A DNA stretch of 64,000 bases from Parafannyhessea umbonata (GTDB lineage: Bacteria; Actinomycetota; Coriobacteriia; Coriobacteriales; Atopobiaceae): positions 1-64,000 of the forward strand of contig NZ_JABAGR010000008.1 in assembly GCF_012844235.1 (NCBI RefSeq). The letters run 5' to 3'. Under the pieces are notes generated by a model. It saw only the letters and a program-made list of their open reading frames with translations. It was not told the DNA's origin and did no database searches. Made by a program: the position numbers and the translations under genes. This document shows positions 9,940 to 64,000 of this stretch, piece after piece (position 1 is the stretch's first letter; every line of letters starts with the position of its first letter).

Positions 9940-10781
9940 GCGAGACCACAGACATCGCCATCGAGTATCGCGACGTCACGAAGGCCTACGGCGAGAAGAC
10001 CGTGCTTTCCCACTTTGACCTTCGCGTGCAAAAGGGGGAGTTCCTCACGATCGTGGGGTCTTCCGGCTGCGGCAAGACGACGGCGCTGAAGATGGTGAAC
10101 CGGCTGATAGAGCCCACCTCCGGCGACGTGCTGGTGGGCGGCCGCAACGTGCGCGACGTGGACGCGATAGAGCTGCGTCGCAGCATTGGATACGCCATCC
10201 AGGGCAGCGTGCTCTTTCCCCACATGACCGTGGAGGAAAACGTGTCGTACGTGCCGAACCTGCTCAACCGGCGCGACCGCGCGCGCACGGAGCGGGCCGT
10301 CAGCAAGTGGATGGACATCGTGGGACTTCCGCAGGACATGCTGGATCGCTATCCCGCGGAGCTTTCCGGCGGGCAGCAACAGCGCGTGGGCATAGCGCGC
10401 GCACTTGCGGCCTCCCCGGACACCCTGCTGATGGACGAGCCGTTTGGCGCCGTGGACGAGATAACCCGCGGCCAGCTGCAGACGGAGATCGCGCGCATCC
10501 ACCGCGAGTGCGGCATCACCATCATGTTTGTGACGCACGACATTGGCGAGGCCTTGCGCCTGGGCACGCGGGTGCTGGTGTTGGACGCAGGGCGGATTCA
10601 GCAGTATGGTACGCCGCAGGAGATACTGGCCCGGCCGGCGACGGAGTTTGTCGAGCGCCTGGTGGCGCGCCAGCGGCACGCATGCGACCTTTCCGACGAG
10701 CGGCTGTGCGCATGCGAGCACAGCGGTGCCGCGCGCGCGGAGGCGGCGCTTCTCGCCCAGGGGGCAGACAAAGGAGAATGA
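9936..10781 (+). CDS. Osmoprotectant ABC transporter ATP-binding protein (OpuCA/OpuFA-like)
   Basis: A 281-residue ATPase with Walker A GSSGCGKTT (about residues 37-45), signature LSGGQQQRVGIARALA, Walker B LLMDEPFGAVD and a switch histidine (FVTHDIGEA). It powers uptake with the fused permease/receptor whose stop codon overlaps its start (ATGA), so translation is coupled. The C-terminal 40 residues are short and contain a Cys/His pattern (RHACDLSDERLCACEH) in place of the CBS pair of longer OpuCA proteins. A copy of the dispersed GCGAGAAG word overlaps the 3' end. Confidence 0.92.
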   Translation: MSETTDIAIEYRDVTKAYGEKTVLSHFDLRVQKGEFLTIVGSSGCGKTTALKMVNRLIEPTSGDVLVGGRNVRDVDAIELRRSIGYAIQGSVLFPHMTVEENVSYVPNLLNRRDRARTERAVSKWMDIVGLPQDMLDRYPAELSGGQQQRVGIARALAASPDTLLMDEPFGAVDEITRGQLQTEIARIHRECGITIMFVTHDIGEALRLGTRVLVLDAGRIQQYGTPQEILARPATEFVERLVARQRHACDLSDERLCACEHSGAARAEAALLAQGADKGE

Positions 10782-10782
10782 C

Positions 10783-11238
10783 ATGCAGATAACCAGCAGA
10801 CTCACCATGGCCGCACACATGGTGTGCGCAATCGACTACTTTGGCGACAAGCTTCCCGTGACGAGCACGTTTCTGGCGGGGAGCCTTGGCACGAGCCCGG
10901 TCATGGTGCGCACGATCATGGGCATGCTCAAGCAGGCGGGCATCATCAGCTCGAGCAAGGGGAAGTCGGGCATCACGCTGGCGCGCCCGCTTGAGGACAT
11001 CTCGTTGCTGGACCTGTGGCGCGCCGTGGACCAGACGGAGGCGAAGTCCCTCTTTCACTTTCATGAGGCCCCGTGCCCGCAGTGCCCCGTGGGCGGAAAC
11101 ATCCACGCCGCGCTGGACGGCCACCTCGAAGCCGCGCAGCGTGCGCTGGAAGACCAGCTTGCCGCGGTCTCGTTGGAGGAGGTCGAGGCAGAGGTGCGCC
11201 GCCGAGCGGACGCGGGCGCGGCGCGGCAAGGGGCGTAG
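10783..11238 (+). CDS. Rrf2 family transcriptional regulator
   Basis: A 151-residue winged-helix protein of the Rrf2 family (YwnA-like). Residues about 1-60 hold the DNA-binding domain (VTSTFLAGSLGTSPVMVRTIMGMLKQAGII). A later CPQCPVGGNI segment (about 98-107) supplies a CxxC pair where Fe-S or thiol-sensing Rrf2 members carry their cysteines. AAGGAGA precedes the ATG, one base after the ATPase stop. As the last gene of the operon it probably represses the palindromic promoter upstream of the flavin/ferredoxin gene. Confidence 0.85.
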   Translation: MQITSRLTMAAHMVCAIDYFGDKLPVTSTFLAGSLGTSPVMVRTIMGMLKQAGIISSSKGKSGITLARPLEDISLLDLWRAVDQTEAKSLFHFHEAPCPQCPVGGNIHAALDGHLEAAQRALEDQLAAVSLEEVEAEVRRRADAGAARQGA

Positions 11239-11326
11239 CGCCGCCGCGGGCGCGACACCGAGCGCGGGCGTGGTCCTTCTCGCCCGGCGCGGCGCGTGTC
11301 GATTCTGTGGCACGGCGCGCCGTGGA

Positions 11327-12039: not shown

Positions 12040-12094
12040 ATGCGACTGTAAGTACGTGCGGGCGAGAAGGGCCTCGCTCTTGCCCGCGCCCTCG

Positions 12095-12745
12095 CTACCA
12101 GGCCGCGAACCTCACGTTCTCCAGGGACCAGTGCACGTCGCGCACGTAGTCCTGCAGCGCGGCGCCGTCGCCCGCGCGGAAGAGCCCCAGCATGTGGCGG
12201 TGCTCCTCGTTCGCGGCGCGCATGTTGTCCAGGGCCTGTGCGTCGTCGCGCGCATACGATCGCGACGACAGCTGACCCATGAGCTCGGACAGGGCCCTCT
12301 GCAGGCGGGCGTTGCCGCAGCGGTCTATGTAGCGCTGGTGAAACTCGCGCTGCAGGTTGTAGTAGCGCTCCGTGAGCCCGCCTGCGATGGCCAGCTCCAT
12401 GGACTCGCACAGGAAGTCCATGTTCGCGAGGTCGTCCTCCGTCATGTGCGGCGCGGCCAACAGCGCGGCGCGCCCGTCAAGGGGGCCCAGCATCTCGAAC
12501 ACCTCGCGCGCGCTCTGCTCGTCAAAGCTCCGCACGCGGAACCCGCGGCGCGGTACACCCTCCAGGTAGCCGTCGGCCTCAAGCTGGATGAGCGCCTCTC
12601 GCACCGGCGTGCGGCTCACGCCCATGGCCTCGCTCACGGCAAGCTCGCCGACCTTCTCGCCCTGCGCAAGCTCCCCGCGCTCGATCTGTGCCCTCAGCTC
12701 TTGGTACACGCGCTGCTTAAGCGGCGCCAAGACGTGTCCCGCCAT
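12095..12745 (-). CDS. GntR family regulator, FadR subgroup (FCD domain)
   Basis: A 216-residue regulator. Residues about 8-75 are the GntR winged helix (GELAVSEAMGVSRTPVREALIQLEADGYL); the remainder is an all-helical FCD ligand/metal-binding domain with Asp/His positions (FHQRYID, NEEHRHML). GGGGAGG precedes the ATG. It is divergent from the dimethylargininase-like gene, and both share a region with two TTGTATACAT sites. It probably controls that gene and itself. An exact copy of the dispersed GGGCGAGAAGG word lies within the coding region (reads GEKVGE). Confidence 0.9.
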   Translation of the reverse strand: MAGHVLAPLKQRVYQELRAQIERGELAQGEKVGELAVSEAMGVSRTPVREALIQLEADGYLEGVPRRGFRVRSFDEQSAREVFEMLGPLDGRAALLAAPHMTEDDLANMDFLCESMELAIAGGLTERYYNLQREFHQRYIDRCGNARLQRALSELMGQLSSRSYARDDAQALDNMRAANEEHRHMLGLFRAGDGAALQDYVRDVHWSLENVRFAAW

Positions 12746-16492: not shown

Positions 16493-17536
16493 ATGGCGTC
16501 ATTGGACGAGAAGTGCCAGAGTCCCGAGGTGGAGGACGAGCTGCGCAGGCTGAGGGTGTTCGACCTGCACTGCGACACGCTGGACTCGCTGTGCATGAGG
16601 GACGTCGAGCCCTTTGCGACGCAGCTTGCGAACACGCTGGGCGGAGACATGGTCGAAAACGACCTTGCGCTTGCGGCGGGACGCATGGCGAAGGCGGCGC
16701 CCGGGGGATGGACGCAATGCTATGCCGTGTGGGTGCCGGACGACCTCTCGCACACGCCGTTCACGCCGCTGGAGTTCTATCGCCACGTGAGGGACTACTT
16801 CAAGCGGCAGACAGCCACGAACTCGTGCAGCCTCGCGCGTACTGAGGACGCCCGCAGCGCGCAGGCGGCCCATGCGTGGGGGAGCGTCGCCGCGATGCTC
16901 ACGGTAGAGAACGGGTCTCTCATCGGGCGCGACCTTGCCGTGGTGGACGAGCTCGCGGCGGATGGCGTGAAGATGCTGACGCTCACGTGGAACGGGAAGA
17001 ACGACATCGCGTCCGGCAACGACACGGCTGATGGCATGTCCGACTTCGGCCGCGAGGTCGTGCGCGCGCTGGAGGACCGCCGCATCGTGGTGGACGTGAG
17101 CCACCTGAACGATGCGGGCTTCGCGGACCTGCTGCGCGTGGCGACGCGACCGTTCGTGGCGTCGCACTCCAACAGCCGCGCCGTGTGCCCGCACCCGCGC
17201 AACCTGACGGACGCCCAGTTTGGCGAGATCCGCGACCGCGGCGGCCTTGTGGGCATCAACTACTACCGCGCGTTCGTCGCGGACGAACCTGCGGGCAAGG
17301 ACGTGACGTTCGACCAGCTCAGCAGGCATATCGACCACTTCCTCTCCCTCGGGGGCGAGAAGGTCCTCGCCCTGGGCAGCGACTTCGACGGGTCGGACAC
17401 CCCCGCCTGGCTCGCACGCTGCGACGACGTGCCCGCGCTCTTCTCGCGCGTCGCGTCGCGCTTTGGGCTGGACCTCGCGCGGCGCATGTTCTGCCAGAAC
17501 GCGCAGGAGTTCTTCGAGCGCAACGAGACGCGGTAG
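16493..17536 (+). CDS. Membrane dipeptidase-type peptidase (M19 family)
   Basis: A 347-residue zinc peptidase of the M19 (renal dipeptidase) family. Metal ligands: FDLHCDTLD near residue 25 (HxD), a bridging Glu in the LTVENG segment (about 140) and histidines in VVDVSHLND and FVASHSNSRA. The final GSDFDGSD motif is also typical. It should cleave dipeptides in the cytoplasm. GGAGGGGGAG precedes the ATG, 70 bases after the uvrA2 gene. An exact GGGCGAGAAGG word encodes the conserved GGEKVLALGSDFDG, showing that part of the word's usage reflects ordinary coding. Confidence 0.9.
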   Translation: MASLDEKCQSPEVEDELRRLRVFDLHCDTLDSLCMRDVEPFATQLANTLGGDMVENDLALAAGRMAKAAPGGWTQCYAVWVPDDLSHTPFTPLEFYRHVRDYFKRQTATNSCSLARTEDARSAQAAHAWGSVAAMLTVENGSLIGRDLAVVDELAADGVKMLTLTWNGKNDIASGNDTADGMSDFGREVVRALEDRRIVVDVSHLNDAGFADLLRVATRPFVASHSNSRAVCPHPRNLTDAQFGEIRDRGGLVGINYYRAFVADEPAGKDVTFDQLSRHIDHFLSLGGEKVLALGSDFDGSDTPAWLARCDDVPALFSRVASRFGLDLARRMFCQNAQEFFERNETR

Positions 17537-20833: not shown

Positions 20834-22819
20834 CTAGATCGTGTGCGCGGCCTCGTACGCGTCCCAAATGGCCGTGAGGATGTTGCCCACGTGGCGCCCG
20901 TCGCCGATCTCGAACACCTCGTACCCGTGTCCGCGCAGGTCAGGTGCCATGGACGGGTTGGGCCTGAAGCCGACCGCGATTACCACGGTGTCGGCGGGCA
21001 GTGTCCTGACGCCATCCGGACCCTGGACCACGGCGCCCGCGTCCGTCACGGAGGAGATGCGCGTGTTCGTGAGGACGGGCGTGCCGTGGTGGGCGAACGC
21101 GTCGCGCAGGTACATGGCATTTGGCAGCGGCACCGCCGGGCCGGAGCTCAGGATCTGCGGCAGCGCCTCCACGATGGTGACGTCGTGCCCCTTGTTTACG
21201 AGGTCGAGCGAGATCTCGCAGCCCACGAGGCCGCCTCCCACCACGACGACGCGCCGGCCGACGCGCTCCTCATGCAGGAGGGCGTCGATGCAGCCGAGGG
21301 TCTTGGGGTGGTCGATGCCCGGGATGGGCGGCATCACGGCGGAGGAGCCGCTCGCCAGGATGACGGCGTCCGGTGCGAGGCCGTCGACCAGCTCCGGCGT
21401 GGCCTCGACGCCCATGCGCACGTCGACGCCCCAGTCGTCCAGCTCGCCCTGGTACCAGAGGTTGAGCTCGCGGACCTCGCCCTTGAAGTCGTGCGCACCG
21501 CCGCTGATGAGGTGTCCGCCGAGCTCGTCGCCCTTCTCGAGCAGCGTTACGCGGTGGCCGCGCATGGCACAGGTGCGCGCCGCCTCCATGCCGGCGACGC
21601 CGCCGCCCACCACCACGACGCTCTTGCGCACGAGCGCCGGCGTGGGCGCGTAGTCCTTGTCGCGGCCGATGAGGGGGTTCACGGCGCAGCCGCTGGGAAG
21701 TCCCTGGAACAGGCGGAGCAGGCAGCCCTGGTTGCAGGCTATGCAGGGGCGGATCTTGTCCGGGCGGCCTATGGCGACCTTCTTGGGGAGGTCGGGGTCG
21801 GCGAGCATGGGCCTGCCGATGGCGATGGCGTCGAAGGCGCCCTCCTCGATGCAGCGCTCGTCCGCGTCGACGTCGCCCATGCGGCTGCCGCAGATGATGG
21901 GAATGCCCACGGCCTCCTTCGCGGCGCGCGCGATGTCCTCCATGTAGCCGCGCTTCACGTACATGGGTGGGCAGGCGTAGTAGAAGCTGTCGTACACGCC
22001 GGTGTCCACGTCGAGCGCGTCTACGCCCGCCTCCTCCAGGATGCGGCAGATCTGGACGCCCTCCTCGAGCGTGCGCCAGGCCTCGCCCTCGCCGTCGATC
22101 GAGCCCTGGTTAAAGCCCCTGGCGTACGCCTTCAGCCCCAGGCGCACCGTCACGGCGAAGTCGTCGCCGCACGACTCCTTTATGCCCTGGACGATCTGCG
22201 TGCACATGCGCATGCGGCCGCGCAGGTCTCCGCCGTACTCGTCCGTGCGGCGGTTCGTGAGAGAGGACGCCATCTGGTCAAGCAGGTAGCCCCAGTGTAT
22301 GGCGTGAAGCTCGACGCCGGGGTATCCCGCCTGCTGTACCACGCGGGCCGCGTCCACCATCATCTTGATCTTCTCGCGCACGTCCTCCGTCGTGAGGACC
22401 GGGTTCATCTTGTCCGTGGTGCCAAAGTACGGGTTGGCGCTGGGGCCATAGGAGCCGGGGCTGTTGCGTCCGAGGCCTGCGGATATCTGGATGAACATCT
22501 TGGCGCCGTACGCCTCGAGCCGGGCGAGAAGTGCGGCGGAGCTTACGATGAACGCCTGGCGGGATGCGGGCGTCGCCATGAACGAGGGACCGAGGGCGCC
22601 GGGCTCGTCGATCTTGTAGTCCGTCATGAGGGCGCCGGTCTGCACGAGGCCCATGCCGCCCTGGGCGCGGCGCACGAAGTACTCGATCCCCTCCTTGCTG
22701 AAGGACCCGTCCGGCGCGAGGTAGGCGCCCGTGGTGGTCGGCGCCATCACGAAGCGGTTCTTGATTTTGATCTTTCCTATGGCAAACGGGCTGTTGAGGG
22801 CTGCGTAGCTGTCTTGCAT
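20834..22819 (-). CDS. NADH:flavin oxidoreductase, enoate reductase / BaiCD-BaiH-like
   Basis: A 661-residue old-yellow-enzyme-type reductase. Residues about 1-330 are the FMN TIM barrel (RFVMAPTTTGAYLAPDG; VELHAIHWGYLLDQ active-site His pair). Next comes a [4Fe-4S] segment (CIACNQGCLLRLFQGLPSGC), then FAD and NADH Rossmann motifs (VVVVGGGVAGMEAARTC; VVVVGGGLVGCEISLDLV). The architecture matches 2-enoate reductases, 2,4-dienoyl-CoA reductases and the bile-acid enzymes BaiCD/BaiH. It should reduce an activated C=C bond; substrate unknown. AGGAGGAGT precedes the ATG. Monocistronic. Confidence 0.9.
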   Translation of the reverse strand: MQDSYAALNSPFAIGKIKIKNRFVMAPTTTGAYLAPDGSFSKEGIEYFVRRAQGGMGLVQTGALMTDYKIDEPGALGPSFMATPASRQAFIVSSAALLARLEAYGAKMFIQISAGLGRNSPGSYGPSANPYFGTTDKMNPVLTTEDVREKIKMMVDAARVVQQAGYPGVELHAIHWGYLLDQMASSLTNRRTDEYGGDLRGRMRMCTQIVQGIKESCGDDFAVTVRLGLKAYARGFNQGSIDGEGEAWRTLEEGVQICRILEEAGVDALDVDTGVYDSFYYACPPMYVKRGYMEDIARAAKEAVGIPIICGSRMGDVDADERCIEEGAFDAIAIGRPMLADPDLPKKVAIGRPDKIRPCIACNQGCLLRLFQGLPSGCAVNPLIGRDKDYAPTPALVRKSVVVVGGGVAGMEAARTCAMRGHRVTLLEKGDELGGHLISGGAHDFKGEVRELNLWYQGELDDWGVDVRMGVEATPELVDGLAPDAVILASGSSAVMPPIPGIDHPKTLGCIDALLHEERVGRRVVVVGGGLVGCEISLDLVNKGHDVTIVEALPQILSSGPAVPLPNAMYLRDAFAHHGTPVLTNTRISSVTDAGAVVQGPDGVRTLPADTVVIAVGFRPNPSMAPDLRGHGYEVFEIGDGRHVGNILTAIWDAYEAAHTI

Positions 22820-24892: not shown

Positions 24893-27538
24893 CTAGCTGG
24901 AGCAGCTCTCGCACTCGTCCACCTCGAGCGACTTGCTGCGGACGTAGTAGACGGTCTTCACGCCGTCGCGCCACGCCTCGAGGTAGAGGCCCAGCACCTG
25001 GCGCATGGTGTACTCGTTCGTGATGTAGAGGTTCACGGACTGGGCCTGGTCGATGTGGCGCTGGCGCACGCCGGCCGCGCGCATGCTCCACGTCTGGTCG
25101 ATGTAGTGGGCGGGCTTGTAGTACCACCACGTCCTGGGCGAGAGCTCCGGCGCGACGCGCGGGAGCATGGCGCCCTTCTTCTCCTCCAGGAAGAACTTGC
25201 GCATCACGGGGTCGAGGCCGGCCGTGGTGCCCGCGATGATCGAGGTGGAGCTCGTAGGAGCTATGGCGATGAGGTAGGCGTTGCGCAGGCCGTGCCTGGC
25301 CACGCGCGCGGCGAGCTCGCGCCACGCCGGGGACGTGTAGCCGCGCTTGGCGAAGTAGGCGCCCGTCTGCCAGTCCGAGCCCTCGAACTTCTCGTATGCG
25401 CCTCGCTCGCGCGCAAGGTCGCACGACGCCTCGATGGCGTGGCGGTTTATGCGCTCGAACACGTCGTCCGCGAAGTCGAGGTGCGCCTGCGTCTCCCAGC
25501 CGATGCCGCGCCTCGCGAGCATGTGGTGGTAGCCGGAGACGCCGAGCCCGATGGAGCGGTAGCGGCGGTTCGTGACCTTCGCGTACGGCAGCGCATAGAA
25601 GTTGAGGTCTATCACGTTGTCCAGCGCGCGCACGGCCGTGCGCACGGTCTGCGCCAGGTACGCGTCGTCCTCCACCGGCAGCCGCCCGAGCGACAGGCTC
25701 GCGAGGTTGCACACCACGAAGTCGCCGGGGCGCGTGGTGGTGACGACCACGGTGTCGCCGCCTTCCGTCACGACCTCCTGGCTCACGCCCTGGATCTCGC
25801 TCGTGTTCTGGGCGATCTCGGTGCAGAGGTTCGAGCAGTAGATCATGCCGGCGTGCGGGTTGGGGTTCGCGCGGTTCACGGCGTCGCGCATGAACGCGAA
25901 CGGCGTGCCGGTCTCCACGGCGCTGCGCAGCACCAGGCGGACTACGTCCTTCACCGTGACGGTGCGCTTGGGTATGCGCGGGTCGGCCACGCACTCCAGG
26001 TAGCGGCGCTCCCACTCCTCGCCATAGTAGTCCTCAAGCGCGTATCCGCGCGCCACCAGGATGTCGTGCGGGCACATGAGGTGCCATGGCTGGTTAAGGT
26101 CCTCCTGCGCCATACGCCAGAACAGGTCCGGGTAGCACACCGCGGGGAACACGTCGTGCGCCTTCATGCGGTCGTCGCCGTTGTTGGTGCGCAGCTGCAG
26201 GAACTCGGGCAGGTCGCGGTGCCACGCGTCCAGGTACACCGCGACGGCGCCCGCGCGCACGCCCAGCTGGTCCACGGCGACGGCCGTGTCGTTTATCACG
26301 CGTATCCAGCGCACGACGCCGCCGGCCGCGCCCCTAAAGCCGCGGATGCTGCCGCCCTTGGCACGCACCTTCCCCAGGTACATGCCCATGCCGCCGCCGT
26401 ACTTGGACACCTGGGCAAAGTTGTCCACGCTGCGGTAGATGCCCTCCAGGCTGTCGGGAACGGTGTCGATGAAGCAGCTGGACAGCTGGTGGTGGGGCTT
26501 GCGCGCGTTCGAGAGGGTCGGCGTGGCCATGGTGACCTCAAGCCGGCTCAGCATGTCGTAGAAGCGCCTGACCCACCCCATGCGGGCGCCCGCCTCCTCG
26601 CGAAGCGCCAGGTGCAGCGCGATGCCCATGAACATCTCCTGCGGGGACTCCAGCGGCACGTGGTCGTGGCTGGATACCACGTAGCGCTTCAGCAGCAGGT
26701 CGAGGCCGGGGTAGTCCAGAAGGTCGTCGCGGCCGGCGTCGATCCACGTGGCCGCGAGCTCTATCTCGTCGCGCGTGTAGCCCTCAAGTACGTACGACCC
26801 GTACAGCCCCTGGTCCGTGAGGTAGCGGAGCTTGCCATAGAGGCCGTCGATGCCGCGGGCGCGCTCCTGCCGGCGAAGGCGCCACGCCGCCACAAGCGCC
26901 AGCAGCCTGCCCGCTATGCGCGACCACTCAGGCGCCTCGGCGCTCGTGAGCTCCACGGCGGCCCGCACCAGGGCGTCCGCCCGCTCGTCCGCCCCCATGG
27001 ACGGCTTCGCGAAGCCTGAGAACTTCGCCGCGAGAGCGGAGAGCGGGTAGGTCGCGGGGTCGAACTCCCGCGAGACCCTGTCCAGCACGGCGTCGAGCGC
27101 GCGCGACATTCCCTCGGCCCCGTCGGGCGAGAAGGACGCGCCGCCCTCGCCCGCGGCCGCGTCCCGGGTATAGGGGAACGCGAGCTCGCAGATCGCCCGC
27201 CGTGCGGCCCTGAGCTCGGAGCGGCGGTGGCGGTACAGGATGTACGCCTTCGCGGCGTCGTAGTGGCCCCTCTCCATCAGGGTGCGCTCCACGAGGTCCT
27301 GGATGGACTCGACGTCCTGCGCGTCGTCCGCGCCCAGGCGCGCCTCCACCGCCGCAAGCAGCGCCTCGAGCGCGCCGGCGTCCTCTGCCGTGCCGTCGCC
27401 CACCTCCGCGAGCGCCTTTCGCATGGCGGCGCCGATCTTGCGCCTGTCGTAGGGCTCGACCCTTCCGTCTCGCTTCGTTACCACCGTCGTGTTCCCATCT
27501 GCCAGCGCGCCGTGCCGGCGCGTACACTCGTCAGTCAC
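24893..27538 (-). CDS. nrdA: Ribonucleotide reductase, large (alpha) subunit
   Basis: An 881-residue class I RNR alpha chain. An N-terminal ATP-cone (TKRDGRVEPYDRRKIGAAM, about residues 20-38) gives allosteric control. The catalytic barrel carries the cysteine-bearing FVVCNLASLSLGRL and NPHAGMIYCSNLCTEIAQ (finger loop) and PTSSTSIIAGTTAGLDP motifs. The C-terminal tail ends ECESCSS, the redox pair re-reduced by thioredoxin or a redoxin. The GTG start (VTDECTRRHG) is chosen as the first plausible one; a second GTG 18 codons later, just before the cone, is possible. The start lies 23 bases from a palindrome shared with nox. Confidence 0.92.
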   Translation of the reverse strand: MTDECTRRHGALADGNTTVVTKRDGRVEPYDRRKIGAAMRKALAEVGDGTAEDAGALEALLAAVEARLGADDAQDVESIQDLVERTLMERGHYDAAKAYILYRHRRSELRAARRAICELAFPYTRDAAAGEGGASFSPDGAEGMSRALDAVLDRVSREFDPATYPLSALAAKFSGFAKPSMGADERADALVRAAVELTSAEAPEWSRIAGRLLALVAAWRLRRQERARGIDGLYGKLRYLTDQGLYGSYVLEGYTRDEIELAATWIDAGRDDLLDYPGLDLLLKRYVVSSHDHVPLESPQEMFMGIALHLALREEAGARMGWVRRFYDMLSRLEVTMATPTLSNARKPHHQLSSCFIDTVPDSLEGIYRSVDNFAQVSKYGGGMGMYLGKVRAKGGSIRGFRGAAGGVVRWIRVINDTAVAVDQLGVRAGAVAVYLDAWHRDLPEFLQLRTNNGDDRMKAHDVFPAVCYPDLFWRMAQEDLNQPWHLMCPHDILVARGYALEDYYGEEWERRYLECVADPRIPKRTVTVKDVVRLVLRSAVETGTPFAFMRDAVNRANPNPHAGMIYCSNLCTEIAQNTSEIQGVSQEVVTEGGDTVVVTTTRPGDFVVCNLASLSLGRLPVEDDAYLAQTVRTAVRALDNVIDLNFYALPYAKVTNRRYRSIGLGVSGYHHMLARRGIGWETQAHLDFADDVFERINRHAIEASCDLARERGAYEKFEGSDWQTGAYFAKRGYTSPAWRELAARVARHGLRNAYLIAIAPTSSTSIIAGTTAGLDPVMRKFFLEEKKGAMLPRVAPELSPRTWWYYKPAHYIDQTWSMRAAGVRQRHIDQAQSVNLYITNEYTMRQVLGLYLEAWRDGVKTVYYVRSKSLEVDECESCSS

Positions 27539-27582: not shown

Positions 27583-27706
27583 AAAGGCGGCACAAGTGGT
27601 GGCGTGGAGCCATCTACATACCGCATGTTGTGTTTGTGAGGTGCGCAACGATGCTTGCGAGGGCGTCGGGCGTCATGTAGGCGCGCTGCCGGCGGGCGAG
27701 AAGGGC

Positions 27707-30672: not shown

Positions 30673-31068
30673 TTACAGGTTCTTCTCGCCCCAGTCCCTC
30701 AGCTGCATCAGTATGGGCACCAGCTCGCGCGCCTGCGGCGTCAGGCTGTACTCCACGCGGACCGGCATCTCGGCGTACTGCGTGCGCAGCACCAGGCCGT
30801 CGGCCTCCAGCTCCCTGAGCGAGGCCGCCAGCATGGTGTTGGTGATGCCAAACACCAGGCGGCGCAGCTCGCCGTAGCGCAGCTCGTCCGCCTGCGACAG
30901 CGCCACGATCAGCAGGATCTTCCACTTGCCTCCCACCGCGTCCAGCACGCGCCGCAGCGCGCAGCCGGACCCGGTGACGCTGGGGTCCGCGCTCGCCAGG
31001 CAGGGCGACGGATTCTTCACATGTGCCGCCGTTGTCGTGCGGGCGGCATTCTTGCTGGTGGCTGCCAT
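30673..31068 (-). CDS. HxlR family redox-type transcriptional regulator
   Basis: A 131-residue winged-helix regulator. The HxlR core is clear: CALRRVLDAVGGKWKILLIV, LRYGELRRLVFGITNTMLAASLRELEADGLV and the wing VEYSLTPQARELVPIL. The Cys immediately before the first helix (GSGCAL) is at the position of the sensing Cys of YodB/HypR-type members; another Cys lies in the short N-terminal tail. It is divergent from thioredoxin with a palindrome between, suggesting thiol-stress control of trxA. GGAAAG precedes the ATG. Confidence 0.88.
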   Translation of the reverse strand: MAATSKNAARTTTAAHVKNPSPCLASADPSVTGSGCALRRVLDAVGGKWKILLIVALSQADELRYGELRRLVFGITNTMLAASLRELEADGLVLRTQYAEMPVRVEYSLTPQARELVPILMQLRDWGEKNL

Positions 31069-31631: not shown

Positions 31632-31685
31632 GTGCTCTGTCCTACATTCACGCCCCCTGGGCGAGAAGTGCCGCCGCCTTGCCCC

Positions 31686-34193: not shown

Positions 34194-34223
34194 GCCACGC
34201 CCTTCTCGCCCCGCGCAAGGCGA

Positions 34224-38297: not shown

Positions 38298-38598
38298 GTG
38301 CCGTCGCACCGTCCTTCTCGCCAATCGCCCGGCGGGCCCGTCGCGGGTCCGCGCCGCCTGCGGGCACGCGCCCGCACCACCCAGTGTAGGACGCCGCCGG
38401 CAGTCATTCCGTTGCAGGCGCAACGCAGCGTGTGCCCGTGGCAGCGCGCGTCTCCCTTGCCTGCGGGTGCGCCGGCAACCGACGCGGGCGAGAAGTGCGC
38501 CGCCCGCGGTTTAGGCCGCGCCATACGGGATAGAATCACCTCGACCACGAACATGGCGGCGCGCGGACGCCTGCGCGCCGAGGCGATGGAGGCGAGGC
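38298..38598. other. 301-base divergent gap between UDG and DUF389 genes
   Basis: It holds near-copies of the dispersed word in opposite orientations (38313-38323 and 38486-38496, each one mismatch) and a short GTTGCAGGCGCAAC palindrome near 38411. No convincing promoter or open frame was found. Confidence 0.4.
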
Positions 38599-40671: not shown

Positions 40672-40878
40672 GCGTGCCTCCGGTTGCGTTTTGCCTGGTA
40701 TGAGGGCATGCCGCGGGCGGGTGCGCGCGTCCTTCTCGCCCGGGGGCGCGCCGGCGGCATAACCAGTACACAGTGTAATGGATGCAAGTACAAAGATGAA
40801 GTTAACAAATGGCTGGGAGGCGCGTAAAACTGTTCGCGGAACGTTTTTGGCGGGCGTGCTCACGGGACGGAGAGCTTG

Positions 40879-45964: not shown

Positions 45965-46338
45965 CGCGACCAGCGCCCGGGCGAACTGCCCATGACGCCC
46001 GCGGGCAGAGGGCGTGGGCCGAGGGCACGGGCGAGAAGAACGGCGGCGAGAAGAACGGCAGCCCCTGCGGGCGCGGCCACGGGGTCGCGCCCGCTTCTTG
46101 TTGGCGGACCCCGTTGCGGAGGCGCGAGGCCGCGGCGTTTCGCCCCTGCGCCGCCCACATGTGAGGACGCGGCTTTTCTCACCTATCTACCTGCGCGTAT
46201 TTCGATTGCGCTACGTGCGCGCTACCCGTTCGTGTCAGGGTCATTATGATTTTGGCAATCGGGCCCCTCCGGGCGGGGCCGGCCGTAAACTAGGCTGGAC
46301 CACATCTGCCACCCATGGCACAGGCGAGAGGAGACCCG
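45965..46338. other. 374-base gap between purF and gltB
   Basis: The left part holds two GGCGAGAAGAACGG copies of the dispersed-word type (46029-46055) and the purF terminator. The right part is a more AT-rich promoter zone (around 46190-46260) and a GGGCCCC/GGGGCC hairpin at about 46259-46280, just before the gltB leader. No specific promoter is called. Confidence 0.45.
46067..46102 (+). terminator. Rho-independent terminator of purF
   Basis: GCGGGCGCG (46067-46075) pairs with CGCGCCCGC (46086-46094) and is followed by TTCTTGTT. Confidence 0.75.
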
Positions 46339-54855: not shown

Positions 54856-55095
54856 CAGTCCTCCTCTGCAAAGTCGACTGGGCCGCGTCCGCGGACCCTT
54901 CGTACATATTGCATGATAGCGGGGACTGGTTGCATTTGAATTTCCCCAACGTGACGGTTACGAATGCGAAACCGTTTCAAAACCATTGCCCGCGCCGGCG
55001 TCCGCGCGTACGTGCGCGGTCCCGACGCGGGCCTGGACCTTGGAAAAAACGTGCATGTGCGTGGGCGAGAAGAACGTGGCGTCGCGCCTCGCGCC

Positions 55096-56661
55096 CTAGC
55101 GCTCCGCGAAGTGGTCGCGCGCAAATCCCATGGGTTGCACACACTCGAGCGTGCCGAGGTAGTTGCCCTCGCGGTCGCGCACTGCCATGTAGCGCACGAG
55201 CACGGGCTCGCCCTTCTTCTGCATCCACACGTCGACGGAGTCTCGCTGGCCACTGCGAAGCATGTCTATCACGTTTCGAACCATGTACTCGATCTTTGGC
55301 GGGTGGCACGACCACACCTCGCGCCCGAGCGCGCTTGCAGGACGCTTGAAGAGCTTCAGCTTGCCGTCGTCGTTCCAGTAGCGGTTGATGTTCTTCTCGT
55401 CCACAAACGTGAGCTCCATGGGGATGGTGTTCAGCACGGCATCCAGCTGCGCGGCAGAAAGCGTGCCCGTGGGAAGCGAGACGTCGCCACCACCCAGCGT
55501 CGCGCGCGCGTCCAGGGAGGCCGCGTACTTCTCGCCCTCGCCCCAGCGGCCGACCTCGGAGGGGTCCAGCATGCAAAGCTCGTAGCCGCGAAGGTCGACG
55601 TAGGCCTGCAGCCACTCCTGGTCCGTGAAGCACCGCACGCACAGCGGGAACAGGATGTTCGCCTCCTTGTAGCACATCTCGTCCGCGCGACGGACCACGG
55701 CGGCGGCGCGGTCGCGCCACGAGGCGTCGCGCGCTTCCGGCGCGGCCGCCACCAGGGCGCGCAGCTCGTCGCGGATTTCGTCGTCCACACCCCACATCAC
55801 GTCCGCGGGGCCAGAGTAGCCGTGGCGCACCTTCAGCACGGGGTACAGCAGGTCGCCCTTCTTGGCGTAGTGGCCGCCTACCTTGGCGAGAAGCGCAAGC
55901 TCCTTTGCCGTTGCCTCGTCGTCGGCAGCGTCCAGCGCCTGCTGCGCCGCGGCGACCTGGCGCGCGATGGCCTTGTTCTCGAGCGAAAGGACGTTCACGG
56001 GGTGGCCTTTCAGCGCCGCGAGCACGCGCGTCTTGAAGTCGCCCTCGCCGGTGCCGCCCGCGATGGAGTCCATCACCGCGGCCTCGGCGTTCGCGATGCG
56101 CTCCTCGCGCGTGGCGCCGTGGAACAGCGCGGAGTGCACGTCGCACAGGCGCTGCACGTCCTCCACCTTCGCGCCGCCCTCGATCAGGCCCTGCTCCGCG
56201 CGTGCGATCTCCGCTGCGTCCACGTCGCTGAAGTTCGCCACGAACTCGCGGCGCACGCTCTCCAGGTCCTCGCCGGCGGAAAGGCGGCTCACGTAGCTCG
56301 AGAGCAGGCGCGCGCGGCCGGCCTCGTCCGTCGCGACGGCGGCAGGGCCCGCGTCCGTGGCGCCGTCCGCGGCACCGGCGGCCGCGTCCTTCTCGCCCGC
56401 GGGCGCCGCCGTCGGTGCGGCCACGGGCGCGGGCTGGCCTGCCACCTCGAAGCCGGCCGCCTCGAGCGCGTCCACCACCTTGGCAATGTCGATGCCCTTT
56501 ATCTGGGCGCCCCGGGGGATGGTCATCACGCGGCCCACGGTCTCGAGCGCCATGGGCTTCGCGATGTCCGCAAAGCCCAGGTCCCTCATGATGTCAACCA
56601 CCTCGGGGTAGTCGCTCGCGAGGTCGTGCACGGTGCGCGAGAGGTCGATCGTCTTCGGCAT
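55096..56661 (-). CDS. DUF1858-DUF438-PAS sensor protein
   Basis: A 521-residue cytoplasmic protein. N-terminal DUF1858 (IDLSRTVHDLASDYPEVVDI, about residues 5-72); a flexible Ala-rich linker (about 75-110) that contains an exact dispersed word (AGEKDA); DUF438 (RLSAGEDLESVRREFVANFS, about 120-185); a hemerythrin-like helical part with His residues (HPVNVLSLENKAI, GGHYAKKGDLLYPVL, about 210-330); and a C-terminal PAS_10 domain (MELTFVDEKNINRYWNDDGK, about 405-515). Such proteins are thought to sense redox or oxygen. Its DUF1858 has a paralogue at 57816. AGGAGCAACC precedes the ATG. Confidence 0.88.
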   Translation of the reverse strand: MPKTIDLSRTVHDLASDYPEVVDIMRDLGFADIAKPMALETVGRVMTIPRGAQIKGIDIAKVVDALEAAGFEVAGQPAPVAAPTAAPAGEKDAAAGAADGATDAGPAAVATDEAGRARLLSSYVSRLSAGEDLESVRREFVANFSDVDAAEIARAEQGLIEGGAKVEDVQRLCDVHSALFHGATREERIANAEAAVMDSIAGGTGEGDFKTRVLAALKGHPVNVLSLENKAIARQVAAAQQALDAADDEATAKELALLAKVGGHYAKKGDLLYPVLKVRHGYSGPADVMWGVDDEIRDELRALVAAAPEARDASWRDRAAAVVRRADEMCYKEANILFPLCVRCFTDQEWLQAYVDLRGYELCMLDPSEVGRWGEGEKYAASLDARATLGGGDVSLPTGTLSAAQLDAVLNTIPMELTFVDEKNINRYWNDDGKLKLFKRPASALGREVWSCHPPKIEYMVRNVIDMLRSGQRDSVDVWMQKKGEPVLVRYMAVRDREGNYLGTLECVQPMGFARDHFAER

Positions 56662-57815: not shown

Positions 57816-58244
57816 ATGTCAGACAGCACCACCAAACCCACGACCGCGACGGACGCGGCGGCAGGCGCGGGCGAGAAGGTCGTGGACGTATCGGTCGAGC
57901 TCGCCCGCACGCTCGAGGCGCAGCCCAAGGTCGGGGGAATCCTTCGCGAGCTCGGCTTCGAGGAGCTTCCCGGGGACAAGACCATCCTCGAGGTCTGCAC
58001 GGACGCCGGCGTCGACCCGTCCATCGTCACGCTCGCGCTCGCCGCGGAGGGCTTCGAGACCCGCGGCTACGTGAGCGAGGACGGCGGCGTCGCCGCGAAG
58101 ACGTTCGAGAACGTGCTGAGCGCCCTGTTCGACCCCACGAGCACGCTCATGCCGAACGCCTCCCCGTCGCAGGCGCCCATGCTAAACCACATGGAAGCGG
58201 CCATTCGCCGAGCGCAGGACAGGGGAGACCTTCCCAAGGAGTAA
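57816..58244 (+). CDS. DUF1858 domain protein
   Basis: A 142-residue protein. After an Ala/Thr-rich leader that includes an exact copy of the dispersed word (AGEKVV), residues about 22-90 form a DUF1858 domain (VDVSVELARTLEAQPKVGGI, LRELGF), clearly related to the N terminus of the DUF438 sensor. The C terminus is short and uncharacterised (LNHMEAAIRRAQDRGDLPKE). DUF1858 occurs beside hybrid-cluster and Fe-S proteins; role unknown. It starts the operon that continues with a lipoprotein and a fused ABC transporter. GGGAGCAG precedes the ATG. Confidence 0.8.
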   Translation: MSDSTTKPTTATDAAAGAGEKVVDVSVELARTLEAQPKVGGILRELGFEELPGDKTILEVCTDAGVDPSIVTLALAAEGFETRGYVSEDGGVAAKTFENVLSALFDPTSTLMPNASPSQAPMLNHMEAAIRRAQDRGDLPKE

Positions 58245-59457: not shown

Positions 59458-60882
59458 GTGACCCGTCGCCCCAGCGACATACTCAAGAGGCTCGCCCCCG
59501 TCGTGCCGTGGATCGTGGCATGGCAGGTGGCGAGCCTCGTCGTAGGGAGCTCAATCCTCCTTGCGGGCCCCGTGGACACGGCGCTCCGCCTTCTCGCCCT
59601 TCTGGGCGAGAAGGACTTCCTCGCTACCGTGGGCTTCTCGCTCGCGCGCATCGCCCTCGGCTTCCTGCTCGCGTTCGCGCTCGCGGTCGTCCTCGCGCTT
59701 GCGGGGCGACGCCATCCGCTCGTTGATGGGCTCCTCGCCCCGGGCGTCTCCGCGCTGAAGAGCGTGCCCATCGTCTGCGTCATCGTCCTCCTGCTCATGT
59801 TGGTCGGCTCGCGGAGCGTCTCTGCCATCGCCGTGTTCCTCGCGGTGTTCCCGGCGGTGTACTTCAGCTGCCGCGAGGCGCTTGCGCACGTCGACCCCAA
59901 GGTGTCCCAGATGCTGGGCGTCTTCGGCGTCGCGCCCGTGCGCCGGTTCCTCGCGCACACGTGGCCGCAGGTGCTGCCGTACCTCGTGGGAACCAGCAGG
60001 AACGTCTGCGGCATGGCCTGGAAGGCCGGCGTCGCGGCCGAGCTCATCGGCAGCCCCATGGGGTCTATAGGCGAGCGGATCTACAACTCAAAGCTCCTGC
60101 TCGACACGGCGGGGCTCTTCGCGTGGACCATCGTGATCGTCGCGGCGTCGTGGCTGTGCGAGCGCGCGTTCGTCGCGGTGCTCGCGCGCACCGGCTCGTG
60201 GGCGCGGCGCCTGAGCCTGCGCGTGGGCCGCCCACGGGGCCCCCGCTCCCAGGCGGACGCGCGGGGGCAGGCGGTCCGGCCGGCTTCGGCCGGCCCGACG
60301 ATCCTCCTTCGCGACGCGTCGATTGGCTACGGGGGGACGGTCGTGGCGTCCGGGCTGGACCTCGAGGTGCTCCCGGGCGACCGCGTGCTGCTGGCCGACC
60401 GCTCCGGCGCGGGCAAGACCACGCTCCTGCGCACGGTCGCGGGACTGCAGGACGTCCTTGCCGGCACGTGCAGGCGCCCGGTGCGGCCCACCATGGCGTT
60501 CCAGGAGCCGCGCCTGGTTGAGGACATGTCCGCCGTGCAGAACGTCCTGCTCGTGACGGGGTCCGTCCGCGACGCGTCAGCGTGCTCGCGCGTGCGCTCG
60601 CTGCTGCTCGAGCTCCTGCCGGAGACCGTGATCGACGTCCCCGTACGCGAGCTCTCCGGCGGTCAGCGCCGCAGGGCAGAGATCGTCCGCGCGCTTGCGG
60701 CCTCGGGGGACGCCGTCCTCCTGGACGAGCCGTTCTCCTCGCTCGACGCCGCCTCGCATGCGCGGGCGGCGGCGTTCGTGACGCGCCACCTCGACGGTCG
60801 CGCGCTCGTGGTCGCCTCGCATCTGCCCGACGACGTGCGACTTCTGGATGCCACGTCCTTCTCGCTCGAAAACAGCAGGTAA
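59458..60882 (+). CDS. ABC transporter permease and ATPase fused in one protein (SsuC-SsuB-like)
   Basis: A 474-residue fusion. Residues about 1-255 are a BPD permease with six helices and the EAA-type loop (KVSQMLGVFGVAPVRRFLAHTWPQVLPYL). An Arg/Gly linker leads to an ATPase from about 282: Walker A DRSGAGKTT (K320; the usual first Gly is Asp), signature LSGGQRRRAEIVRALA (about 399-414), Walker B VLLDEPFSSLD (D423), and a switch His in ASHLPDD. NitT/TauT systems normally encode these parts separately. The ATPase is short (~190 residues). GTG start with AGG upstream. The operon's lipoprotein supplies substrate. Confidence 0.85.
   Translation: MTRRPSDILKRLAPVVPWIVAWQVASLVVGSSILLAGPVDTALRLLALLGEKDFLATVGFSLARIALGFLLAFALAVVLALAGRRHPLVDGLLAPGVSALKSVPIVCVIVLLLMLVGSRSVSAIAVFLAVFPAVYFSCREALAHVDPKVSQMLGVFGVAPVRRFLAHTWPQVLPYLVGTSRNVCGMAWKAGVAAELIGSPMGSIGERIYNSKLLLDTAGLFAWTIVIVAASWLCERAFVAVLARTGSWARRLSLRVGRPRGPRSQADARGQAVRPASAGPTILLRDASIGYGGTVVASGLDLEVLPGDRVLLADRSGAGKTTLLRTVAGLQDVLAGTCRRPVRPTMAFQEPRLVEDMSAVQNVLLVTGSVRDASACSRVRSLLLELLPETVIDVPVRELSGGQRRRAEIVRALAASGDAVLLDEPFSSLDAASHARAAAFVTRHLDGRALVVASHLPDDVRLLDATSFSLENSR
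59589..59614. repeat. Head-to-head pair of the dispersed word inside the ABC fusion gene
   Basis: CCTTCTCGCCC (59589-59599) and GGGCGAGAAGG (59604-59614) are exact complements four bases apart, a perfect 11-bp hairpin within the coding region, encoding LLALLGEKDF. Confidence 0.85.
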
Positions 60883-61957: not shown

Positions 61958-61961
61958 CCCT

Positions 61962-62831
61962 CTAGAAGTCGAGGTCGGAGTCCTCTTCATCCAAGAGCGC
62001 GCGTGCGACCTCCTGCCCCTCGATCGCCTCGCGCAGCCGCCTCTTGTAGTAGTGCTGGCCGTCCGCGATGTCGATGCGCAGGCCGACCTCGGCGTCTTGG
62101 AACAGCTTCAGCGCGCGAAGGGGGTCGGCGTCGATTCCCCACCTCTCGCACTCCGGGTCGACGAGCAGCTGCGCGATGCGGACGGCCGGCTGTGCGCGCT
62201 CCACGACGCCCTGGGAGAGCTCGAGGCTGTGCTCCCAGAGCATGTGGGCCCTGCGCATGTCGCGCTCGACGGCCTTGCCGCGCGCGTACATGTCTCCCAG
62301 CTTGTACGCGGCCTCGAACGAGGGGGCGAGCGCGGCGGCGAGCGAGTAGCACTCGTACGCCTTCTGGTAGTCCGGCTTGCCCGTGCGGACGTACTCGTAG
62401 ATGTATCCCAGGTTGACGAGCGACTGGAGGTTGCCGTGGTCCACGGCCATCTGGTAGAGCTCCTTCGCCTTGGCGAAGTCCTGCTCGAAGAAGTCGCCGA
62501 GGTAGTAGTGCGCGCCGAGTGCGTTCATGCACGCGTCGCTCCCAAACGCGATGCCGACGCGGTACCCCGCGAGGAGCACGTCTTCCACCGAGGGGTCCTG
62601 GGCGAGCGCCTCCAGCACGTCGTCCTGGTTCTTCGTCACGAAGTCCGTGAACTCGTTCGGGTCGGGCGATATCGCCGCCTTGGCGAGGTCTTCGAGGAAG
62701 GAGTCGAGGTCGAGCGCGGGCTCCTCCTCGTCCGGGGCCTCGTCCTCCTCGCTGACCGAGAAGTCAACCTTTGCGAGGGTTGCGAGCCTCTTGAAGTCGT
62801 CCACGTTCGCAGTCCAGTCGTCTAAGCTCAT
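61962..62831 (-). CDS. Sel1-like/TPR repeat protein
   Basis: A 289-residue acidic protein. Residues about 20-50 are Asp/Glu-rich (SEEDEAPDEEEPALDLD). From about 95 there are Sel1-type helical repeats: ALGAHYYLGDFFEQDFAKAKELYQMAVDHGN, LVNLGYIYEYVRTGKPDYQKAYECYSLAAAL and KLGDMYARGKAVERDMRRAHMLWEHSLEL. Such repeats bind protein partners; no enzymatic motif and no signal peptide are visible. GGGAGGAAGCC precedes the ATG. It is usually annotated as a tetratricopeptide protein in Coriobacteriia; role unknown. Confidence 0.85.
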   Translation of the reverse strand: MSLDDWTANVDDFKRLATLAKVDFSVSEEDEAPDEEEPALDLDSFLEDLAKAAISPDPNEFTDFVTKNQDDVLEALAQDPSVEDVLLAGYRVGIAFGSDACMNALGAHYYLGDFFEQDFAKAKELYQMAVDHGNLQSLVNLGYIYEYVRTGKPDYQKAYECYSLAAALAPSFEAAYKLGDMYARGKAVERDMRRAHMLWEHSLELSQGVVERAQPAVRIAQLLVDPECERWGIDADPLRALKLFQDAEVGLRIDIADGQHYYKRRLREAIEGQEVARALLDEEDSDLDF

Positions 62832-63164
62832 GGCTTCCTCCCATCCGCGCCGCGCGCACATGCTTGACACGAGTTTCATGATGGGCCATGCGCCCGCGCG
62901 CGGCGTCGTCGCATCGGCGACCGCGGGTTCACGCCCCGCCGTGGCGCGTCGTCTGGTGCCCGCCGGGTGCCCCAAACAACAAATCTCGATTTGTTGTTTG
63001 GGCCGGTTGTGCCTCTAGCTGCGAAAACGTGATTTTGGGGCTTACAACAAATCGCGATTTGCTGTTTGGCGATGTGCGGGATGACGATTGTGCGCGGAGG
63101 TTTGGCACGAGGGGCCGCGCTGCGGCAACGAACGAGGCGGCCTCGTGCGCAGGCCGGGCCGGCG
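62832..63164. other. 333-base gap with two palindromes
   Basis: Between the AI-2E permease end and the Sel1 gene start (both minus). It holds two related AACAAATC...GATTTG palindromes and, to their left, the presumed Sel1 promoter. No open frame of interest. Confidence 0.45.
62971..63068. repeat. Two copies of a CAACAAATC-N-CGATTTGTTG-type palindrome
   Basis: Copy 1 (62971-63002) is a 14-bp perfect stem, CCCAAACAACAAAT / ATTTGTTGTTTGGG, around CTCG. Copy 2 (63044-63068) is ACAACAAATCGCGATTTGCTGT followed by TTGGC, with one mismatch. The two start about 70 bases apart and share AACAAATC and CGATTTG cores. They are strikingly AT-rich for this genome. Confidence 0.75.
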
Positions 63165-64000
63165 CTAGTTTCGCGCGTTGCGCCAGGCCACGTACTTCTC
63201 GAAGTAGATCTTTGCGAGCGCGGCGCACGGGACGGCGACGAACATGCCGACGACGCCTCCCACCTTGCCGCCGACGACGAGGGCGACTATCACGAGGATC
63301 GGGTGCACCTCGACGGAATCGGCCAGGATCTTTGGGTTCACGATCTGGCCGTCCACGAACTGTATGACGGCGAGCACGACGACGGCGAGCGCGAACGTGC
63401 GGACGTCGCCCGCGACGAGGCACGAGACCGCGGTGGACGCGTACGCCACGATGGGGCCGACGTAGGGGATGAGGTTGCCGATGCCCGTGGCGAGCCCGAT
63501 GAGGACGGCGTAGCGCACGCCGACGAGCTCGAGCGCGATGGTGACGGCGACGCCCATGAGCAGGGCGTCGATGAACTGCCCGCGCATGTAGCCCGCGAAC
63601 GCGTGGCGCACGTCGAGCGCGAACGCGTGCAGGTGGCCGTAGGCGCGTGTGCCCATAAGGGAGCGCAGCGTGCGGTCCCAGTACGTGGCGAGGTTGTGCG
63701 CGTCGATGAGGAAGTAGACGCAGAATATGACCGCGAGCACGCCGTTGGCGACGAAGTCCCTCACGGCGCCGACGCCGTCGGTCACGGTCTGGCCGAAGCT
63801 CGCGCCCGACGTGCCGAACACGCCGGCGACGGCCGACGCGGCATGCTCGAGCTCCGCCCTCGAGAACCCGAGCGTGGTGGCGGCGCGCGCGATGCCGTCG
63901 TAGGCGCGCGACATGCTGCGGGCGACGTAGTCCGCGAGCTCCGCGAGGTTGCCGAGCGAGACCGAGCGCACGCTGTCCGTGACGAAGGCGAGAAGGACGG
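63165..64000 (-). CDS. AI-2E family transporter (5' end outside window)
   Basis: The C-terminal ~278 residues of an AI-2E/PerM family permease. Visible helices include AVIFCVYFLIDAHNLATYW, ALLMGVAVTIALELVGVRYAVLIGLATGIGNLIPYVGPIVAY and the family-typical VVLAVIQFVDGQIVNPKILADSVEVHPILVIVALVVGGKVGGVVGMFVAVPCAA. Members export signalling or other small molecules, or exchange ions; substrate unknown. Full-length proteins are ~350-400 residues, so ~80-120 N-terminal residues lie beyond the window. Confidence 0.9.
   Translation of the reverse strand, partial: VLLAFVTDSVRSVSLGNLAELADYVARSMSRAYDGIARAATTLGFSRAELEHAASAVAGVFGTSGASFGQTVTDGVGAVRDFVANGVLAVIFCVYFLIDAHNLATYWDRTLRSLMGTRAYGHLHAFALDVRHAFAGYMRGQFIDALLMGVAVTIALELVGVRYAVLIGLATGIGNLIPYVGPIVAYASTAVSCLVAGDVRTFALAVVVLAVIQFVDGQIVNPKILADSVEVHPILVIVALVVGGKVGGVVGMFVAVPCAALAKIYFEKYVAWRNARN

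What the first reader, a model, noticed from the sequence alone, without database searches (positions are those of the whole stretch)
10748..63996. Over-represented 11-bp word GGGCGAGAAGG: candidate uptake sequence, Chi-like site or dispersed regulatory module
Fifteen exact copies plus about 20 one-mismatch copies occur in 53 kb, on both strands. A hand estimate assuming independent bases at two-thirds GC gives about 0.1 exact copy by chance in 64 kb. Copies sit in many unrelated contexts: intergenic gaps (11275, 27694, 34201, 40731), gene ends and linkers. Presence on both strands and in non-coding DNA rules out pure codon usage or Shine-Dalgarno signals, although GAG AAG is a common codon pair. 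Uptake sequences (Neisseria, Pasteurellaceae) and Chi sites behave like this; I know of none described for this group, but could not search.
Basis: partly seen in the sequence, partly recalled or inferred. Interest (0 to 1): 0.85.

Follow-up and report, generated by a model that had tools for sequence, protein, structure and literature searches.

The report
Candidate DNA-uptake word in Olsenella-like bacteria
A short DNA word is repeated about once per kilobase, on both strands, throughout the genomes of a group of Gram-positive gut bacteria and is preserved while the DNA around it changes, which is how the 'self' labels used by Neisseria and Haemophilus to choose which DNA to import behave, and no such label was found described for this phylum.

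Summary
The window has 15 exact and 29 one-mismatch copies of GGGCGAGAAGG (2.7 expected); the genome has 319 exact (3 for the reversed word). The real unit is GGGCGAGAAGNNC (RRC preferred) in the window's genus, with a family-wide core CGAGAAGNNC: the final C is present in 143 of 149 copies, including all 40 intergenic ones. The core occurs 2,286 times in 2.3 Mb (1 per kb), and 1 per 0.65-0.7 kb in another genus. Codon usage cannot explain it: antisense copies exceed a synonymous-codon shuffle fivefold, and intergenic copies are as dense as coding ones. Intergenic copies show no significant leading-strand bias. Between two species, fixed positions are about 95% conserved, while the two free positions (75%) and flanks (81%) drift. 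Other genera prefer other flanks. Sampled Actinomycetota outside the order sit at a codon-like baseline. The genome has ComEA, ComEC, DprA and a single Tad pilus locus, the parts list of Micrococcus luteus competence. Best reading: a DNA uptake sequence, read by an unknown receptor of a Tad/ComEA system. Uptake is untested; a chromosome-organising protein's site is the main rival, and Chi/KOPS are disfavoured.

The parts
354..366 (-). 13-mer GGGCGAGAAGCAC, sense in a gene
10746..10758 (-). 13-mer GGGCGAGAAGCGC, antisense in a gene
11273..11285 (-). 13-mer GGGCGAGAAGGAC, intergenic
12060..12072 (+). 13-mer GGGCGAGAAGGGC, intergenic, between convergent genes
12650..12662 (-). 13-mer GGGCGAGAAGGTC, sense in a gene
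17353..17365 (+). 13-mer GGGCGAGAAGGTC, sense in a gene
22522..22534 (+). 13-mer GGGCGAGAAGTGC, antisense in a gene
27125..27137 (+). 13-mer GGGCGAGAAGGAC, antisense in the ribonucleotide reductase gene
27694..27706 (+). 13-mer GGGCGAGAAGGGC, intergenic; the relative G001 has AGGCGAGAAGAGC here
29390..29400 (+). exact 11-mer GGGCGAGAAGG without the +12 C (followed by AT): not a full 13-mer
30679..30691 (-). 13-mer GGGCGAGAAGAAC, sense in a gene
31659..31671 (+). 13-mer GGGCGAGAAGTGC, intergenic, convergent
34151..34163 (+). 13-mer GGGCGAGAAGGAC, sense near a gene end; forms an inverted pair with the next copy
34199..34211 (-). 13-mer GGGCGAGAAGGGC, intergenic, convergent
36319..36331 (-). 13-mer GGGCGAGAAGAGC, sense in a starch-synthase-like gene
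38486..38498 (+). 13-mer GGGCGAGAAGTGC, intergenic, divergent
39895..39907 (+). 13-mer GGGCGAGAAGGGC, antisense in a gene
40729..40741 (-). 13-mer GGGCGAGAAGGAC, intergenic, divergent
43363..43375 (+). 13-mer GGGCGAGAAGTAC, sense in the GmrSD/RAMA gene
46029..46041 (+). 13-mer GGGCGAGAAGAAC, intergenic
55063..55075 (+). 13-mer GGGCGAGAAGAAC, listed as sense only because of a called 14-aa ORF (55055-55099), so probably effectively intergenic
55525..55537 (-). 13-mer GGGCGAGAAGTAC, sense in a gene
56386..56398 (-). 13-mer GGGCGAGAAGGAC, sense in a gene
57869..57881 (+). 13-mer GGGCGAGAAGGTC, sense in a gene
59589..59599 (-). exact 11-mer GGGCGAGAAGG without the +12 C; left arm of an inverted pair with a 4-base loop, inside an ABC transporter gene
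59604..59616 (+). 13-mer GGGCGAGAAGGAC, right arm of that inverted pair

Best explanation
A DNA uptake sequence (self-recognition word) of a naturally competent monoderm actinomycete. SHOWN: an asymmetric motif, core 5'-CGAGAAGNNC-3', extended in the window's genus to 5'-GGGCGAGAAGRRC-3', occurs about once per kb on both strands, inside and between genes, beyond codon usage, without replichore bias between genes, conserved base by base while its free positions and flanks drift, with other flank preferences in related genera; the genome encodes ComEA, ComEC, DprA and one Tad-type pilus locus. INFERRED: a DNA receptor on the Tad pilus (a minor pilin or TadE/TadG-like protein) or ComEA prefers DNA carrying the word; preferential import and homologous recombination of tagged fragments spread and repair the word (molecular drive) and bias exchange toward kin; different flanks act as dialects that limit exchange between genera.
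For: Abundance: 319 exact 11-mers and 565 13-mers against 3 and 15 for the reversed words; core 2,286 copies against 542 reversed in G000, and 3,333 in G005. Single-base specificity between genes: core 84 copies, substituted words mostly 0-14 and at most 28 each. Not codons: synonymous-codon shuffle gives 145 sense and 31 antisense against 265 and 152 observed in G000; in G005 sense equals antisense at 65 and 64. No replichore bias between genes in the complete genome G001: 11 leading to 16 lagging (13-mer), 42 to 30 (core). Conservation footprint against G001: intergenic fixed columns 93-98%, free columns 75-76%, flanks 81%; all fixed bases kept at 81% of intergenic and 88% of antisense sites against 65% and 64% for one-substitution words. 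Spacing in G001 more even than Poisson and than all 88 control words at 2 kb (0.59 against a control minimum of 0.61). Different flank preferences in g4. Machinery: ComEA-ComEC operon, DprA, Tad locus and no other T2SSF-type filament. Published uptake sequences show the same traits: PMC2397512, PMC1939737, PMC3630211; M. luteus uses ComEA/ComEC with Flp/Tad pili and no comG cluster, PMC6370729.
Against: No uptake data and no identified receptor. ComEC is in all 151 and T2SSF in 150 of 151 sampled genomes of the order, including those without the motif, so the machinery does not correlate with the motif. Inverted pairs are only mildly in excess and mostly inside genes, without evidence of terminators. 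Depletion in accessory DNA is seen in G000 (0.48 against 1.05 per kb) but not in G001. Spacing in G000 C1 is not clearly more even than in controls.
Confidence: 0.6

Rival explanations
1. Binding site of an abundant intracellular DNA-binding protein that organises, marks or protects the chromosome (a nucleoid-associated or condensin-loading factor), placed roughly evenly along it.
For: Near-even spacing in G001, strand balance, and conservation inside and outside genes would fit. Even spacing of Haemophilus USS was once read this way (Karlin et al., as discussed in PMC1939737).
Against: An asymmetric motif of 8 fixed bases repeated about once per kb, with flank preferences that change between genera, is unusual for nucleoid proteins, whose sites are usually degenerate or palindromic (own knowledge). 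No candidate protein was identified or looked for.
Confidence: 0.2
2. A Chi-like recombination hotspot read by the end-resection helicase-nuclease (AddAB, RecBCD or AdnAB type).
For: Over-represented, asymmetric, short, tied to exchange of homologous DNA; would also be kept by selection.
Against: Chi sites are leading-strand biased (about 75% in E. coli, own knowledge); here intergenic copies are 11 leading to 16 lagging, or 42 to 30 for the core, and the bias of sense copies mirrors gene orientation while antisense copies lean the other way (30 to 79). One Chi is not expected to be as dense between genes as within them. Which resection enzyme is present was not determined.
Confidence: 0.1
3. 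FtsK/SpoIIIE polarity sequence (KOPS or SRS type); the word contains GAGAAGG, close to the B. subtilis SRS GAGAAGGG (own knowledge).
For: Partial sequence resemblance only.
Against: Such sequences must be strongly polar toward the terminus. The motif is not polar between genes, and the enriched unit ends in NNC and extends 5', unlike GAGAAGGG.
Confidence: 0.02
4. Codon usage or a common Gly-Glu-Lys-Asp/Gly/Asn/Ser peptide, a dispersed mobile element, or an assembly artefact.
For: Many sense copies read GGC-GAG-AAG-RRC in one frame, and codon usage yields about half of the sense cores.
Against: Antisense and intergenic excess; conserved only over the motif with unrelated flanks; present in complete and draft genomes of several genera.
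Confidence: 0.02

Closest known systems
Neisseriaceae DNA uptake sequence (DUS, for example GCCGTCTGAA, read by the minor pilin ComP)
   Same: Short asymmetric word, thousands per genome, both strands, in and between genes, much better conserved than flanks that are themselves more divergent than average, dialects with an invariant core (PMC3630211, PMC2397512).
   Different: Unrelated sequence; monoderm Actinomycetota; Tad/Flp locus instead of a type IVa pilus; inverted pairs less prominent and not clearly terminators; no receptor or uptake shown.
Pasteurellaceae uptake signal sequence (USS, AAGTGCGGT or ACAAGCGGT)
   Same: About one per kb, no orientation bias, even spacing, excess between genes, core plus weaker flanks (PMC1939737).
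   Different: Unrelated sequence and phylum; 10-13 bases with two free positions instead of a 9-base core.
Micrococcus luteus Tad/Flp-pilus competence
   Same: ComEA, ComEC and a Tad locus without a comG cluster (PMC6370729).
   Different: No uptake sequence turned up for M. luteus in the text searched; competence of the window's organism is only predicted.
Chi sites and KOPS/SRS
   Same: Short over-represented asymmetric words.
   Different: Those are polar along replichores; this one is not between genes.

Membership tests
DNA uptake sequence (DUS/USS) | Strongly over-represented, asymmetric short word throughout the genome | tested here: met
[quoted passage not shown]
   (intergenic copies; gene copies follow gene orientation)
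DNA uptake sequence (DUS/USS) | Inside and between genes, relatively frequent between genes | tested here: met
   13-mer 0.55 per kb between genes against 0.26 in genes; core about 1.05 against about 1.0 per kb
DNA uptake sequence (DUS/USS) | Word better conserved than its flanks between species | tested here: met
DNA uptake sequence (DUS/USS) | Even spacing | tested here: inconclusive
   clear in G001, weak in G000 C1
DNA uptake sequence (DUS/USS) | Frequent inverted pairs | tested here: inconclusive
   8 outward pairs within 30 bp against about 3 expected in each of two genomes; most inside genes
DNA uptake sequence (DUS/USS) | Depleted in recently acquired DNA | tested here: inconclusive
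   yes in G000, no in G001; unaligned runs may include rearranged core DNA
DNA uptake sequence (DUS/USS) | Dialects sharing a core in related genera | tested here: met
   GGG..RRC in g1, weaker GG with AA-C in g4, same core; modest samples for other genera
DNA uptake sequence (DUS/USS) | Natural competence machinery | tested here: met
   ComEA, ComEC, DprA, Tad locus; not discriminating, as the whole order has ComEC
DNA uptake sequence (DUS/USS) | Sequence-specific uptake through a receptor | not testable with these tools
   needs experiments
Chi site | Leading-strand bias | tested here: not met
Chi site | Attenuates a resection helicase-nuclease | not testable with these tools
   needs biochemistry
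KOPS/SRS | Strong polarity from origin to terminus | tested here: not met

The most novel reading that the evidence does not exclude
A self-DNA recognition system of natural transformation in monoderm Actinomycetota, working through a Tad pilus and ComEA, with genus-level dialects built on CGAGAAGNNC: a third lineage of uptake sequences that evolved independently of Neisseriaceae and Pasteurellaceae, and the first in a Gram-positive lineage as far as the held literature shows.
Probability: 0.55. Interest if true: 0.92.

Novelty: new variant of a known kind. Interest (0 to 1): 0.85.

Why it matters
Uptake sequences have been described as a peculiarity of two Gram-negative families (PMC3630211; PMC7811141 abstract). 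An independent, unrelated one in Gram-positive bacteria that have a Tad locus and no comG-type or other type IV pilus locus would show that self-recognition in transformation has evolved repeatedly, predict natural transformability and a route to genetics for a gut group with few tools, and give a new receptor to find. If it is not an uptake sequence, a strictly conserved word about once per kb points to an undescribed genome-wide DNA-binding system. Either way it is directly testable.

Tried and rejected
Iterative PWM refinement at a low threshold drifted toward codon background and was replaced by class-separated counts. Machinery presence as a correlate: ComEC 151/151 and T2SSF 150/151, so uninformative. 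Inverted pairs as terminators: weak, mostly inside genes; the window's own pair at 59589-59616 is inside an ABC transporter gene and one arm lacks the C. Accessory-DNA depletion: mixed. The first control-word script failed because no permuted word was abundant enough; repeated with other words, where the opposite-orientation preference of close neighbours was within control scatter and was dropped. The inverted-pair scan of public genomes served only to obtain names; many of its single hits in unrelated taxa look like chance. Rfam search of the second repeat: no match beyond a tRNA. An NCBIfam scan of competence proteins failed on a malformed input and was not repeated. Literature: no uptake sequence found for Coriobacteriia or other Actinobacteria (the literal word only in unrelated papers among those listed); only open-licence PMC text could be searched, so absence is weak evidence.
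Full report
OBSERVATION. The window contains 15 exact and 29 one-mismatch copies of GGGCGAGAAGG (expected 2.7), and the 2.316-Mb genome 319 exact copies against 3 of the reversed word. In 464 kb the count is 85 against 1.8 (Markov-3) and 2.8 (Markov-4) expected. The word is therefore a genome-wide feature, not a local one.

WHAT THE WORD IS. Aligning copies showed an undetected fixed base: position +12 is C in 96% of 11-mer copies and 143 of 149 GGGCGAGAAG copies (76/80 sense, 27/29 antisense, 40/40 intergenic). In the relative G001 it is 83 of 84. Positions +10 and +11 prefer purines but are free. Separating copies by location gave a core CGAGAAGNNC with GG before it (83% and 76% G between genes in G000). 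Replacing any one fixed base between genes drops the count from 84 to 0-28, mostly below 10; the highest, GGAGAAGNNC with 27-28, is Shine-Dalgarno-like (and my reading).

NOT CODON USAGE. Sense copies share one frame, GGC-GAG-AAG-RRC, so codons contribute. Shuffling synonymous codons across all called genes predicts 145 sense and 31 antisense cores in G000; 265 and 152 are seen. For G001 it is 118 and 26 against 230 and 131, for G005 34 and 10 against 65 and 64. Intergenic density (about 1.05 per kb) equals coding density. Gene calls come from my own simple caller, so single assignments can be wrong, but the class totals are robust to that.

NOT POLAR. G001 is a single contig of 2.353 Mb with gene orientation and GC skew that switch near 0.95 and 2.1 Mb (origin and terminus inferred from this). 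Intergenic copies: 11 leading to 16 lagging for the 13-mer, 42 to 30 for the core (z about 1.4, my arithmetic, not significant). Sense copies follow genes (163 to 43), antisense mirror them (30 to 79). Chi and KOPS/SRS would be polar.

CONSERVED BASE BY BASE. Aligned to G001 (92.7% identical), intergenic cores keep 93-98% at each fixed column but 75-76% at the two free columns, with 81% identity in the 30-base flanks; all fixed bases are kept at 81% of sites against 65% for one-substitution words whose flanks are better conserved (90%). Antisense sites: 88% against 64%; sense 87% against 69%. Neisserial DUS behave alike: highly conserved inside more divergent surroundings (PMC2397512).

SPACING AND PAIRS. 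In 400 contiguous kb of G001 the core is under-dispersed (variance/mean 0.59 in 2-kb bins; 7 empty bins against 23 expected), below all 88 control words (minimum 0.61). In G000 C1 the effect is weak (0.80 against a control mean of 1.12 and 5th percentile of 0.78) and lost above 5 kb, partly because of low-density islands. Outward-facing pairs within 30 bp are about 2-3-fold in excess (8 against about 3) in both genomes but mostly lie in genes. Accessory stretches are depleted in G000 but not G001.

DISTRIBUTION AND DIALECTS. The 13-mer counts across 104 family genomes are 555-782 in the window's genus g1, 84-555 in g4, 129-185 in g12, g27, g30 and g6 (78-95 at the low end of neighbouring genera), and about 20-30 in several others, with reversed controls of about 5-20. 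The fraction of CGAGAAG followed by NNC is a cleaner index: 83-86% in g1, 88-90% in the richest g4 genomes, about 70-79% in g15, g18, g27, g30 and in genus g70 of another family (f10), about 70% in single genomes G038 and G052 of two further families, and about 50% or less in most of f2 and f10 (ratios computed by me). Sampled Actinomycetota outside the order stay at or below about 59%. In G212 (g70) the excess is also seen between genes (32 CGAGAAG in 15 kb, 72% with C). Flank preferences differ: GGG with RRC in g1, weaker GG with AA-C in g4. Names were reachable only through one public scan: Olsenella sp. SW781 and Olsenella uli An733 loci carry the core at 1.4-1.8 per kb with 84-91% C, and a MAG labelled Coriobacteriaceae COR2 aligns to the window's genome at 76-86% over kilobases. 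The window is therefore probably from an Olsenella-like member of Atopobiaceae; this is inference.

MACHINERY. ComEA (SLBB plus helix-hairpin-helix) and ComEC form an operon (C12). DprA is present. A Tad locus with CpaB/RcpC-like, CpaE-like, TadA, TadB, TadC and TadE genes lies on C24, and the only T2SSF proteins in the genome are its TadB and TadC, so no comG-type or other type IV pilus locus is evident. Micrococcus luteus transforms with ComEA/ComEC and Flp/Tad pili without comG (PMC6370729). ComEC is universal in the order and T2SSF nearly so: machinery is necessary for the model but does not separate motif-bearing from motif-free genera.

MECHANISM. Most likely a surface receptor, a Tad minor pilin or ComEA, prefers tagged DNA; import and recombination then enrich and repair tags. 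The receptor and the uptake step are inference. Confidence is 0.6 because all evidence is comparative; a chromosome-organising protein (0.2) and a Chi-like role (0.1) remain possible.

NOVELTY. Uptake sequences are described for Neisseriaceae and Pasteurellaceae (PMC3630211; PMC7811141 abstract); my searches of open PMC text found none for Coriobacteriia or other Actinobacteria. It works like an uptake sequence; membership awaits an uptake assay.

Noticed in passing
G000 C1 at about 13.1, 51.7, 243.3, 257.5 and 360.1 kb (L009, L011, L021, L022, L027): A dispersed intergenic composite repeat of about 0.6-0.9 kb, built of 63- and 73-bp units rich in GTGTACCGG/CCGGTACAC palindromes and AAACTCGGG; at least five places in 400 kb, no Rfam match.
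   Followed up: partly
window 42125-44269: A 714-aa protein with GmrSD N-terminal and RAMA domains, of the kind found in anti-phage or modification-dependent restriction systems.
   Followed up: no
G212, G168, G222 (genus g70, family f10): The core CGAGAAGNNC is strongly enriched in one genus of another family while sister genera in that family are at baseline: ancestral retention, independent gain or transfer between families.
   Followed up: partly
G007 stretches L047-L049, L130-L131: A different abundant word, GGGGAGTACCCCC, and AAACACAGGG, apparently another dispersed repeat.
   Followed up: no
G023 stretches L137-L141: Repeated word GGGACAAAAGTG (7-8 copies in 100 kb), nature not examined.
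   Followed up: no
L027 and C1 302213-308313, 72438-85684: C1 stretches absent from the aligned part of G001 with few or no motif copies (0 in 6.1 kb, 4 in 13.2 kb), possible recently acquired islands.
   Followed up: no
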